64,000 nt of DNA from NCBI GenBank assembly GCA_034620365.1, contig JAQGEQ010000165.1:1-64000 (forward strand), written 5' to 3'. The translations under genes were made by a program, and so were the position numbers. Shown here piece by piece: positions 32,417 through 36,975 of this stretch; the first letter of the stretch is position 1; the number at the start of each line of letters is the position of its first letter. The stretch is from Pegea sp. RAD2-039. Its lineage: Eukaryota > Chordata > Thaliacea > Salpida > Salpidae. The notes beneath the pieces were generated by a model, which was not told the DNA's origin, did no database searches, and saw only the letters and a list, made by a program, of their open reading frames with translations.

Positions 32417-35400
32417 TTAAATTTTCTTTTTGTTTTGAAATTTGCTGATCCAATCAAGGTATGCTTGAACCTGTAGAAAATATATTTAAAAATCTCGTTT
32501 GTATATTTTTTGTTTACTTTTGTATAAACTCCAGGTCTGTGCGTTTCTCCACAGCCATATCCCCATGATACTAAACCAACAAGAACCTTTTTACCGTCTG
32601 TTTCACTCACTAAAGGTCCTCCACTATCACCCTTCAAAAAAATCTGAGATATTAAACAACATTTATTCAATCCTACTAACTTGACAGGCATCTTTCTTTC
32701 CCTCTTTATATCCTGCACAAATCATATGTTTGTTGATATCATTACTTCTTCCATAAAGCTTTTCTAACCATTTGTTACAAATGTTATTACTAATAATTTT
32801 AACGTCAGCACTTTGAAGCAAGTCTTTTGTGTTCACCAAATCTGAAATAAATTTTCGATTTTTCAAATTCTGAAAATTATCTTCCTCACTTCTGGTTTCT
32901 CCCCATCCTGAAACAGTTGCAAGACTCCCAATATTAAGTTGACTGTTTGGTGAAGGAAGACAAACAGGTCTGATGTAGTTGGTAAATACAACTTCATCTT
33001 TTGTCTTTAAATTAATGTCAAAAAGTCAGAAGAAGAATTTGAATTGATCTTCATACCGTGATGATAGCGATATCATTATCATTAGTTTGTGAGTTGTAAT
33101 TTGGATGAATAATAATTTGAGAGATTTCAGCTTCAACTTGACCTTTATCAAAATAGTTTTTATCTCTGTGATATTTTCCTAAATAGATGTGATAAGACTC
33201 AGGTTTAGGATCTGCAATTCTGAAAAATAAACAAATTTTATTCATTAGCTAAAATTTTCACTAAATATTCAACGAGAACAACAAGAAGATTAACTTGTTA
33301 AAAACATAAGATCTAGGTTTCCACCTGACAAGCATGACCTTAAATTAGCAAACATACGATGCAAACAACAACATTGATAAAAACAAGTCACTTATAACAA
33401 ACACTAGTAACAAAAACTTAAAAAAATATCTTCAAAAAAGAAAAGAAATGTCTGAATCAATAGTGGCTTCATCAATAAAATATCAATTCAATAATTAAAT
33501 TTCTTAAATTGTTGAAAAATGTTCTGTAGATGGCCAAAAATGTTTTTAAGTTGTTTACCTGCTGAAGCAATGAGCGGCTGTAAGTAAATGCTTGCTACTT
33601 ATAAGTGTAGCTCCACAAATATGCCGATAACTCTCATCAAATAAGCTAGCTTGCCATGGAATTGAACCATAAAATGAGGGTTTACCTACGAAATCACAAG
33701 AAATAAGTTCTGTAGACTTCTGTCAAACTAATTGGCTTCAAATATTTGAAACTTTAACTTATCTATCGTAGATTTAAAACTTTCAGAAAAAATTTAAATT
33801 TTATATTTGAGTAAAAACTTTAGTATTTAGTTTGCAACACTTCAGTTTCAAATTATAACAAATATTTGAAATCTTACCGCCGACAACTCTTTCAGCTATT
33901 GTAAACTTCAAATTAGAATCAACTTTACCACAAGTACCGGTGTACAGTTCTGAAAAAGACAAAAAATTAAACTTTCAACGTTCCATATTAACAAATTTAG
34001 ATACTTGTAAGAAATGTATTTATTTTCTGAAATGATTTTTGTAACATCAAAAGATGTTGTCTATAAAAAGTGATTCTCAAATTATTTTGTTGGTTTTGTA
34101 GTCGAATCATACTCCTTGTGTCAACTTTGTTACTTAAGTAAAAATGTGAATCAGTATTTCGGTCTATGAGATTGTTCTAAATGATATATTTTCTAGATAC
34201 AGGTATTCTTTGAATTTATCAGTAATTTTGCTTCAAAGTTTCAGTCAGATTAGATAAATGCAAATATACTAAGAATATCTAAAATAAACTTTTTCAAAGT
34301 AACATTATTACGTTGCTGGAAAGATTATAAAATAACTTTCATCTAAATCTTCAGCAGATCAATCTTTAATTAATTGATTATTAATCATCATGTAAAGAAT
34401 TGATGAAAAATTTAAAATAATTTCTGTTGAGTTTCTTACCAACATCATCAGCTTCAAACGAAATAACTTTTTGTTCAGGTAAAGAGCAAACACCACAACT
34501 ATGTCGGCACATACTCATCATATAAACCGAATACTTTGTACTTTTACAATAACCAATTTCCGACCATTCCTTACAACTGAAATTTGAATTATTCAAATCT
34601 GATTCTAATTTTAAACGGTTGATTCTCTATTACTGTTTAATCAAAATCTTTATTTTTTATGAAAACTTAAACAAGCATCAAACAAACTTTTCTAAAGTAT
34701 CTCTACAAGTGTTTTTGCTCAGTACACTTTGCTTGCATAAACCACAGGATTTCTTGCATTGACTTTGCATATAATTCTCATATTTTGCGCAAAATCCTTC
34801 TTTAGACCATCGTTCACATGATCTAGTGATTGGAAAGTATTAGTTACTAAATTAACAAACATGAATCTGCTTACGATAACTTATCTCTACACTCTTCTAC
34901 TATTTTTTCATCTTCTTCATTTTTATCTACAATAAAATTCAGACAAAAGCTATTTTATTAATCCAAATTTAGCAGTTAACTTTTTAACAAATTTTAAGAA
35001 GCTTTTTTTTGAGGTAAAGAAACTTTCTGGAAGTATAATATAAATGATCTCACATAGACAAGACCCACAGGTCTTTTGACATCTTGAATCAAATGAAGAA
35101 CAAAATCCGCGGTCCTTAATTGCTTCACATCTATATTTCAAAAAGTCTTTAGAAGAGATTATCTTCAATTAGCTTCAACTTACATTGATGAAAATATTTT
35201 ATCTTCACATGATCTTGTTTTTAAAGATAATTTTGTTAAATCTTTTTTCGATAGATAATCTGTCGACATTAAACTGATTTTTGTGATTGAACTTTTATTT
35301 TTTTAATTACCTGAGCATTTATATTTCAAATTAATTTGTTTAACATCCTCATCAGAAAAGTTTTCTCTTTGAGCTTTTACCATTTTTCCTGTTCTGTAAA

Positions 35401-36975
35401 TAATTTAAGAATTAAAAACTTTATTCAATTTTGATGAAAATTTTCAGCAGATTCAGTTTTAAATCAACTTTAGATTTTAGAAGTTTACTTTTTGTTCAGA
35501 ATTGTTGCTAGTCCTCTTCTCTTAGCAAAATACTCGCCCCCATAATGCATTACCGATCCCAAATCATAAGGTGAACCATAATTTTCCCAAAACTTTTCTT
35601 GCTTTTCGAAATTCTTTTTTGTCACTAAAATTATCAAAAATTGTTGAAGTTTCTGCTTCTAAATAAGAATTAAAATCAATTTAGAAAATCAATCTCTACC
35701 ATCCATGATATTGTCCCAAACGATAGTCACGTGGTTGTCGCGATCACCTCTTGATTGCTCATGCCAAAAGCCAAGCGCATGCATCATTTCATGGATAACT
35801 GTTCCTAGTTTAATCTCACAGTTTCTTCCAATTGTTATCTGAAGTTTTTGGTAAACAAATATTTAAAGAAGATCAATCATCACTTAATCATAAGTTTATT
35901 GAGTCTCAAGAAAATGATTTGATTACAGAAGATTTATCTATTAATAGAAAGTTAATCTAAGAAACTTTTAGTAATCTGTTAGATGTAAGACTTACTTGTT
36001 GTTTTCCTCCAGTTCTTCCAATGTTTGAAGAGCAACCCCCTAATCCATAAAACTCAACAAAATCTTTCTGACTCTTCCTTTTGACGAAGCGGATGCAAGT
36101 TCTTTTATTGTAACGGGAAATTGCTTCTTTAATTTGACTTTCTTTTTTGCCAGCTAAAAAAATAATATTAGAAAATTGTTTCAAAGAAATCTTCAACTTA
36201 CTAATTGTTGAATGTAGGGTGTAGGGAATCAAAACAAATTTTCCTGTCTTCGGCCATTCGTATCTAGCAAGGTTGATTGCATCTTTTGCACCAGGAGGAG
36301 ATGCAACTGAAGATGGGTCGTAGTGTTGCATTAGTTGCCAATAATCTCCATCTAAGACATACAAATCATAACTTCTCTTCAAAGACAGCTATTTGTAACT
36401 ATTTAGAGTTGAAGTAGAAATTCTCTTTGACATAAATTAACAATTCTAATCTAAAAAGTTTCAATAAATTTAGGAAATAGATTTGAAAGTCTTCTATTTA
36501 ATAAATCTTTCAACTTTTCTCTGAAATTTAAACTTAAAAAGAAACAAACATTTGATTTGGATATCGCCTTCAAAATTCCCACTTCTTTTACATTCGCATG
36601 TAAAACATCCTCTCCCATCTCTTTTTCGTCCAATAGGACAACAGTGCAGGCAACCATCTGTTCCTGGACACCCTTTCGGCTCATAATGATTTTTGATGTA
36701 TGCTGAATAAATCACAAAATCAGATTTTCGAATATTCGAAAAAAATCAACAAACCATTTTCAACATCCTCTGCTGTTTCAGCTAAATTTTCTTCAACACG
36801 TATAAAAGATTCCTCATCTTTATCTGTTAATCTTTCTTCTTTTGATTCTTCCAGTATTTTGTTCACAACCACAGAATGAACTAAGAATTACAATATTAAT
36901 TTCCTAGATTATAAACTGGTCGAACTTACCAATCCGAAACAGAAGAATTAATCTTAAAATTACAGAAATTCTCAT
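32417..36975 (-). CDS. Astacin metalloprotease with ShKT domains and a C-terminal trypsin domain (one gene or two adjacent ones)
   Basis: Exon 1 (36930-36975) gives the signal peptide MRISVILRLILLF. Next come an acidic propeptide (about 36780-36890) and a cysteine-rich module (36555-36704) with CPGTDGC, CCP and GCFTCEC, resembling an antistasin domain. The astacin domain follows: TCIRFV and GCSSNIGR (about 36000-36130), zinc motif HEMMHALGFWHE (about 35780), Met-turn SVMHYG (about 35545) and the usual end NLKYKCS (about 35315). Three ShKT domains follow (about 35060-35260, 34700-34925 and 34440-34600). Then comes a full trypsin domain with ERVVGG (about 33890), TAAHC (33565), DNDIAI (33070), DACQ-GDSGGP (about 32630-32690) and YLDWI, stop at 32417. 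Both active sites are intact. The astacin-to-ShKT join uses donor GTAATT and acceptor GTCGACAG in phase 1 across about 50 bp. Read-through instead would stop two codons later, leaving two genes, but the ShKT-trypsin half has no signal peptide of its own. Confidence 0.75.

What the first reader, a model, noticed from the sequence alone, without database searches (positions are those of the whole stretch)
32417..36975. Astacin metalloprotease, ShKT domains and trypsin possibly joined in one polypeptide
A complete astacin (HEMMHALGFWHE, SVMHYG) is followed on the same strand by three ShKT domains and a complete trypsin (TAAHC, DNDIAI, GDSGGP). The astacin end (KYKCS-G) and the first ShKT exon join in phase 1 through a GT-AG intron of about 50 bp, the usual size here. 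The ShKT-trypsin half has no signal peptide or promoter of its own, whereas its sister gene at 28-31.6 kb has both. A secreted protein with both a zinc and a serine protease site, the latter possibly a zymogen activated by the former, would be an unusual architecture that I do not recall as described.
Basis: partly seen in the sequence, partly recalled or inferred. Interest (0 to 1): 0.85.

Follow-up and report, generated by a model that had tools for sequence, protein, structure and literature searches.

The report
Two-protease fusion protein in a tunicate
One gene encodes a secreted protein that carries both a zinc protease and a trypsin-like protease; the fusion looks real, but sea squirts already have the same kind of protein in databases, so it is a tidy example of a known kind rather than a discovery.

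Summary
The fusion is very likely real. The gene lies on the minus strand (36975 to 32417) and splices into 20 exons and 757 residues: signal peptide, prodomain, astacin, three ShKT domains, trypsin. The doubtful join is a 51-bp phase-1 intron (35310-35260) with a weak acceptor. An unnamed JGI protein on a transcript-sized 2,626-nt contig, P0001, matches 99% of the model at 54% identity and runs straight through the join. Ciona intestinalis ("plasminogen", XP_002131103.1) and Clavelina lepadiformis proteins have the same domain order. Five of 16 other astacin ends in this genome have a GT at the same place and phase. A GT2+GH6 pair marks the genome as tunicate (PMC7464555).

So the architecture is not new; astacin-trypsin association is in print for cnidarians (PMC6767649) and, second-hand, helminths (PMC9848320). 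The proposed activation order is probably reversed: the trypsin half has Asp189 (Lys/Arg specificity), and the residue before the mature astacin is Lys/Arg in 7 of 7 fused proteins. Conserved cysteines 496 and 625 should keep both enzymes linked. Mechanism is inferred, not shown; no RNA from this organism was available.

The parts
36930..36975 (-). Exon 1: start codon and most of the signal peptide (MRISVILRLILLFRI...). Judged by a hydrophobic-core score in my own script (2.76); no signal-peptide program was available
36593..36673 (-). Antistasin-like cysteine motif in the prodomain (exon 3); below Pfam's cut-off here (16.6 v. 21.2 bits), over it in the three Clavelina homologues (26.0, 27.9, 26.3 bits)
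   Evidence: coordinates derived from the exon table
36560..36574 (-). FEGDI motif; Asp104 is the likely zinc-blocking aspartate switch of the zymogen, Asp in 7 of 7 fused proteins
   Evidence: mechanism from PMC9629494 (passages)
35315..36283 (-). Mature astacin domain, residues 132-329, exons 4-8; predicted maturation cut GAK|DAINL
35260..35310 (-).
34440..35259 (-). Three ShKT domains, exons 9-13; each domain is split by an intron after its first Cys-x-Asp stretch
32417..33949 (-). Trypsin part, exons 14-20: activation peptide with Cys496, cut at R510|VVGG, His552, Asp605, Ser705, specificity Asp699 (chymotrypsin 189); stop codon ends at 32417
28042..31584 (-). Sister gene: own hydrophobic N-terminus, ShKT domains, trypsin, no astacin. 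The introns before its first ShKT exon and between ShKT and trypsin are phase 1, as in the focal gene

Best explanation
The locus is a tunicate gene for one secreted zymogen: signal peptide, prodomain (antistasin-like motif plus aspartate switch), astacin, three ShKT domains, trypsin. Supported by sequence comparison: the fusion, and that Ciona and Clavelina proteins have the same order. Inferred: the trypsin half, once cut after Arg510 by itself or by another trypsin-like enzyme, cuts after Lys131 and frees the astacin; a Cys496-Cys625 disulfide keeps the two enzymes together; the ShKT repeats act as spacer or anchor. I put the fusion at 0.93 and the trypsin-to-astacin order at about 0.45.
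For: P0001 (783 aa on a 2,626-nt contig) covers 99% of the model at 54% identity; at the join both read KYKCSDYL. The focal gene has 2,285 bp of introns, so an uninterrupted 783-codon frame on 2.6 kb points to spliced RNA. P0001, P0002, P0004, P0006, P0007, P0010 carry Astacin, ShK and Trypsin over cut-off in the same order; they are 6 of the 120 hits listed. A GT at the same place and phase ends the astacin in 5 of 16 other astacin ends of this genome (read by eye). Trypsin and astacin domains each pair focal with P0001 (93/88; 99/96). Zinc ligands, Met-turn, prodomain Asp and a basic P1 in 7 of 7 fused proteins; serine triad, Asp189, Arg before IVGG, Cys496 and Cys625 in 8 of 8 aligned rows. 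Limulus astacins are trypsin-activated, with a proposed maturation cut at K48-N49 (PMC9629494, passages).
Against: No RNA reads of this organism. The junction acceptor scores poorly (17th of 19). Signal-peptide-like frames with phase-1 GTs exist at 37127 and, in another frame, inside exon 3. A basic P1 is also seen in unfused astacins of this genome, so it does not prove activation in cis. Ciona P0007 falls outside the other fused astacins in the tree, though one clade is not rejected (p-AU 0.131). Eight astacins on contigs C257 and C249 show no ShKT match nearby, so astacin followed by ShKT is common here but not general.
Confidence: 0.85

Rival explanations
1. Two separate genes: an astacin that ends at the TAA two codons after KYKCS, and a ShKT-trypsin gene with its own first exon, as in the sister gene.
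For: Weak acceptor; an in-frame TAA right behind the astacin end; a ShKT-trypsin gene with its own signal peptide lies next door; signal-peptide-like frames with phase-1 GTs at 37127 and inside exon 3; eight astacins on C257 and C249 without a ShKT match.
Against: Six database proteins read through the join, one at 54% identity over 99% of the model. In the 17 fetched regions, chosen because ShKT matches lie near an astacin, ShKT follows astacin on the same strand in 16 and, for the 17th gene, in the refetched L031.
Confidence: 0.05
2. One locus, several products: the full fusion, an astacin-only form by retention of the 51-bp intron, and perhaps a ShKT-trypsin form from an alternative first exon.
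For: Retaining the intron adds Gly-Asn and a stop; alternative first-exon candidates; weak acceptor.
Against: No transcript evidence either way; the chance rate of such candidates in AT-rich DNA was not measured.
Confidence: 0.2
3. One reading: the astacin is activated first and then activates the trypsin half.
For: Both are zymogens in one chain; astacins can act in cascades (recalled).
Against: The trypsin activation site follows Arg in 8 of 8 aligned proteins, a trypsin-type site; astacins favour acidic P1' residues (recalled). The astacin site has Lys/Arg at P1 in 7 of 7. Against my own reading: P1' of the astacin site is Asp in the focal protein and P0001, so the astacin might also process itself.
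Confidence: 0.1

Closest known systems
Ciona intestinalis XP_002131103.1, named 'plasminogen' (P0007), and Clavelina lepadiformis P0004, P0006 (LOC143469186), P0010 (LOC143463339)
   Same: Astacin, then ShKT domains, then trypsin in one chain; same zymogen and catalytic residues
   Different: Here three ShKT stretches and short linkers; the ascidian proteins have 3-5 with Thr-rich linkers. P0007 shows no Pfam antistasin match
Cnidarian trypsin-ShK and trypsin-Astacin proteins (PMC6767649, passages)
   Same: Trypsin joined to ShK and, as a reported association, to Astacin, placed at the origin of Cnidaria
   Different: In Nematostella every trypsin-linked ShK is a single exon; here each of the three is split by an intron, which suggests a separate origin. 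Whether the three domains occur together there in this order I could not see
Helminth astacins with trypsin-like domains (Martin-Galiano & Sotillo 2022, seen only as cited in PMC9848320)
   Same: Trypsin-like domain downstream of an astacin catalytic domain
   Different: Nematoda and Platyhelminthes; presence and order of ShKT not checked
ShKT multidomain proteins as summarised in PMC6409789 (passages)
   Same: Names trypsin-like serine protease as an accessory domain with ShKT, and M12 with ShKT in tunicates
   Different: No protein with all three named in the passages seen
Branchiostoma lanceolatum ASTL (P0122)
   Same: Antistasin, astacin and ShK by precomputed Pfam
   Different: No trypsin domain listed

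Membership tests
Astacin (M12A) | HExxHxxGFxHExxRxDRD zinc site, Met-turn, Pfam Astacin over cut-off | tested here: met
   204 bits v. 22.5; residues in 7 of 7 fused proteins
Astacin (M12A) | Prosegment with zinc-blocking Asp | tested here: met
   FEGDI, Asp104 in 7 of 7; function not tested
Trypsin-type serine protease (S1A) | His-Asp-Ser triad, R|IVGG-type activation site, Asp189 | tested here: met
   231 bits v. 20.6; residues in 8 of 8 aligned rows
Astacin-ShKT-trypsin protein as in Ciona and Clavelina | All three domains in that order in one chain | tested here: met
   By spliced model and homologues; not by RNA of this organism
Astacin-ShKT-trypsin protein as in Ciona and Clavelina | Host genome is tunicate | tested here: met
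   GT2 (PF13641, 39.2 bits) at C14:72156-72536 and GH6 (PF01341, 27.5 bits, just over its cut-off of 27) at C14:74494-74718, same strand; a second GT2 match lies on C257. The pair is the tunicate CesA make-up (PMC7464555, passages). Whether both exons belong to one gene was not modelled; species unknown
Antistasin-type inhibitor domain | PF02822 over cut-off | tested here: not met
   16.6 bits v. 21.2 in the focal segment, 16.2 in P0001; met in three Clavelina proteins; no PDB match at E up to 1 for the Clavelina segment
Plasminogen (name of the Ciona protein) | Kringle domains before the protease (recalled) | tested here: not met
   No kringle family listed at E up to 1 for the focal model or P0007
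Astacin-ShKT-trypsin protein as in Ciona and Clavelina | Both proteases active, one activating the other | not testable with these tools
   Needs expressed protein

The most novel reading that the evidence does not exclude
A self-contained protease switch: an antistasin-like segment in the astacin prodomain restrains the C-terminal trypsin; once a little trypsin is active it cuts after Lys131, which at once frees the astacin and sheds the inhibitor, giving a sharp, one-way activation of two enzymes held together by one disulfide.
Probability: 0.1. Interest if true: 0.6.

Novelty: new member of a known kind. Interest (0 to 1): 0.3.

Why it matters
A zinc and a serine protease in one secreted zymogen is an unusual, testable arrangement, and it sits in public databases under names such as 'plasminogen' or 'uncharacterized protein'. 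Tunicates offer a laboratory species (Ciona) in which to ask whether one half activates the other. The comparison also shows that this is not a private oddity of one genome.

Tried and rejected
Nematode origin (suggested by astacin, ShKT and 50-bp introns) was considered first. The SL1 search found nothing, but nothing rang in its controls either, so that answer is empty; homologues and the GT2+GH6 pair then pointed to a tunicate. COX1, to find the species: no match. Rfam on the window at gathering threshold: nothing. PDB search with the Clavelina antistasin segment: nothing. PDB search with P0001: the 60 rows shown of 551 match the trypsin part. NCBIfam on three proteins gave only a bacterial astacin model, 133.7-160.6 bits against its cut-off of 300. 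Structure prediction was not run; it would not have settled the join or the activation order.

Literature: seven searches gave no title, abstract start or opened passage that describes an astacin-ShKT-trypsin protein in a tunicate. I opened passages of some of the listed papers only, and most subscription papers are not held. PMC3390340, PMC9265791, PMC11673157, PMC1867822 and PMC9382459 (passages) do not describe it in what I saw.

The first script model had a wrong exon 3/4 boundary and gave stops; it was corrected with the acceptor before ATGGAGATTATTGG.

A second fused copy was looked for. None of 17 fetched astacin regions, nor of 8 further regions, shows a trypsin match downstream of the astacin on the same strand within the DNA fetched; reach varied, at least about 0.6 kb (L015, then extended by L030). 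Comparing the place lists by eye gave no other pair; the trypsin list was truncated and 150 of 179 candidates were scored.

Full report
What was checked. The window belongs to an unnamed assembly of 105.7 Mb in 387 contigs. The locus is on the minus strand. I built the gene by hand from three-frame translations, corrected one exon boundary that gave stops, and obtained a 20-exon model from 36975 to 32417 with an uninterrupted frame of 757 residues. Pfam finds Astacin (residues 149-330, 204 bits), three ShK stretches (68 bits) and Trypsin (511-748, 231 bits), far over their cut-offs.

The join. The intron is 35310-35260, 51 bp, phase 1; 10 of the 19 introns of the gene are 47-53 bp. Scored leave-one-out, its donor ranks 14th of 19 and its acceptor 17th of 19; among all GTs and AGs in the gene they rank 35th of 229 and 152nd of 300. 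The splice signals therefore allow the join but do not prove it. Two earlier AGs (35292, 35274) lead to stops in this phase; a later one (35242) would also keep the frame and drop six residues (read). The alignment to P0001 fits 35260: focal KYKCSDYLSKKDLTKLSLK, P0001 KYKCSDYLEKDDLLRLSLK.

Homologues carry the weight. A database search with the whole model gave P0001, 783 residues from a JGI contig of 2,626 nt, 54% identical over 99% of the model. Its frame leaves only about 275 nt of the contig, whereas the focal gene holds 2,285 bp of introns, so the contig looks like a spliced transcript (inference; an intronless copy is not excluded). Of the 120 hits listed (2,927 reached the threshold), 6 carry Astacin, ShK and Trypsin: P0001, P0002, three Clavelina lepadiformis proteins (P0004, P0006, P0010) and Ciona intestinalis XP_002131103.1, called plasminogen (P0007). 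Pfam finds all three over cut-off in the same order in all six. A profile search with these six listed four of them and no new one among its 120 listed rows; residues 1-400 of P0001 gave five of the six among 43 rows. These searches need shared 5-residue words, so absence elsewhere is not shown; the cnidarian cases known from print did not appear in the listed rows.

The same genome. The motif that ends the astacin domain was found at 16 other distinct plausible astacin ends in the fetched DNA. In 5 of them (L014, L015, L019, L022, L024) a GT follows one codon after the last cysteine, in phase 1, as in the focal gene; in the other 11 the next GT lies elsewhere or the frame runs on (read by eye; acceptors not modelled). 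The astacin-to-ShKT intron thus looks like an old feature of part of this family, and the TAA behind KYKCS is best read as intron. In 17 regions chosen for ShKT near an astacin, ShKT follows astacin on the same strand in 16, and for the 17th gene in the refetched L031. Against this, eight astacins on contigs C257 and C249 show no ShKT match. No region of either set shows a trypsin match downstream of the astacin; one, on C28, has a trypsin about 4 kb upstream. The focal gene is the only fused one seen, with the limits told under tried and rejected.

The sister gene. The tandem neighbour (31584-28042) encodes a hydrophobic N-terminus, ShKT domains and trypsin, 544 residues, 80% identical over its length to P0109, a JGI protein of 543 residues on a 2,009-nt contig. 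In a tree of 23 trypsin domains, focal and P0001 pair (93/88) and join the sister, P0109 and L026 (95/93); all seven fused trypsins and five others of ShKT-trypsin or unfused kind form one group (83/94, drawn open). In a tree of 45 astacin domains, 6 of 7 fused astacins group (85/63); Ciona P0007 falls apart, but one clade is not rejected (p-AU 0.131). A simple reading is one fusion in an ancestor of these tunicates with later loss of the astacin half in the sister type. Support is modest, and separate gains are not excluded.

Which animal. A GT2 match (C14:72156-72536, 39.2 bits) and a GH6 match (C14:74494-74718, 27.5 bits against a cut-off of 27) lie 2 kb apart on one strand. GT2 plus GH6 is the make-up of tunicate cellulose synthase (PMC7464555, passages). 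With the named fused homologues all tunicate, I take the genome to be tunicate; the species is unknown.

How it probably works. Seen in the alignment: zinc ligands, catalytic Glu, Met-turn and the prodomain Asp are identical in 7 of 7 fused proteins; the serine triad, Asp189, the Arg before the IVGG-type start and cysteines 496 and 625 in 8 of 8 rows, P0109 included. The residue before the mature astacin is Lys here and Arg in the other six. Inferred: the trypsin half prefers Lys/Arg, so it suits both its own activation site and the astacin site, whereas an astacin does not suit R|VVGG (substrate preference recalled). Horseshoe-crab astacins are activated by trypsin, with a proposed maturation cut at K48-N49 (PMC9629494, passages). 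Several unfused astacins of this genome show dibasic stretches such as SKR|S or IRR|G, which would suit furin-like enzymes; the focal protein and P0001 show a single Lys or Arg. On the other side, P1' is Asp in the focal protein and P0001, which an astacin could accept. Cys496 and Cys625 match the disulfide that ties the activation peptide to the catalytic domain in chymotrypsin-like enzymes (recalled), so the two proteases should stay linked. The ShKT repeats are most likely a spacer or anchor.

The prodomain holds a cysteine motif like antistasin, a serine-protease inhibitor family. It passes Pfam's cut-off in the three Clavelina proteins but not in the focal protein (16.6 v. 21.2 bits) or P0001 (16.2). 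In this genome, 19 of 24 antistasin matches at E up to 1 lie within 0.9 kb upstream of an astacin match on the same strand, compared by eye; the focal motif is not among the 24. Amphioxus ASTL lists it too. So it belongs to astacin prodomains in general and is not special to the fusion; whether it inhibits anything is unknown.

What is known. PMC6767649 (passages) reports trypsin-ShK proteins and a trypsin-Astacin association in cnidarians. In Nematostella every trypsin-linked ShK is a single exon, while each of the three here is split, which suggests a separate origin. PMC9848320 (passages) reports, citing Martin-Galiano and Sotillo 2022 (not seen), helminth astacins with trypsin-like domains. 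PMC6409789 (passages) names trypsin-like proteases as accessory domains of ShKT proteins and M12 with ShKT in tunicates. Seven searches of the held library gave no description of the tunicate protein. The finding is a sound gene model of a known but little-noticed kind: interest 0.3.

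Noticed in passing
window 10635-15176: Tandem array of a 15-bp unit, about 304 copies, 83% matches; the plus strand reads as a Thr-rich TTNGP-type repeat protein of mucin look (835-aa and 674-aa open stretches), though several other frames are open too.
   Followed up: partly
window 1100-2146 and 16399-17445, minus strand: Two closely similar 349-aa open frames rich in hydrophobic stretches, membrane-protein-like, on either side of the repeat array; no Pfam match at E up to 0.01.
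   Followed up: partly
window 61279-61668, minus strand: Exon of a sugar transporter (PF00083, 48.4 bits).
   Followed up: no
genome-wide, e.g. contigs C257, C249, C262, C48, C78, C258, C6: Antistasin-like motif just upstream of an astacin match in 19 of 24 genome matches, and listed for amphioxus ASTL: a prodomain cassette of many astacins here.
   Followed up: partly
L015 (G000:C28:496500-506400): trypsin 740-2749, astacin 7006-7650, ShKT 8668-9270: A trypsin lies about 4 kb before an astacin-ShKT gene on the same strand, the reverse of the focal order. Its trypsin groups with that of the ShKT-trypsin locus L027, and its astacin sits beside the fused group.
   Followed up: partly
window 37052-37127 and 36684 / 36657, minus strand: Signal-peptide-like frames with phase-1 GTs upstream of and inside the gene: possible alternative first exons for a product without astacin, or chance.
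   Followed up: no
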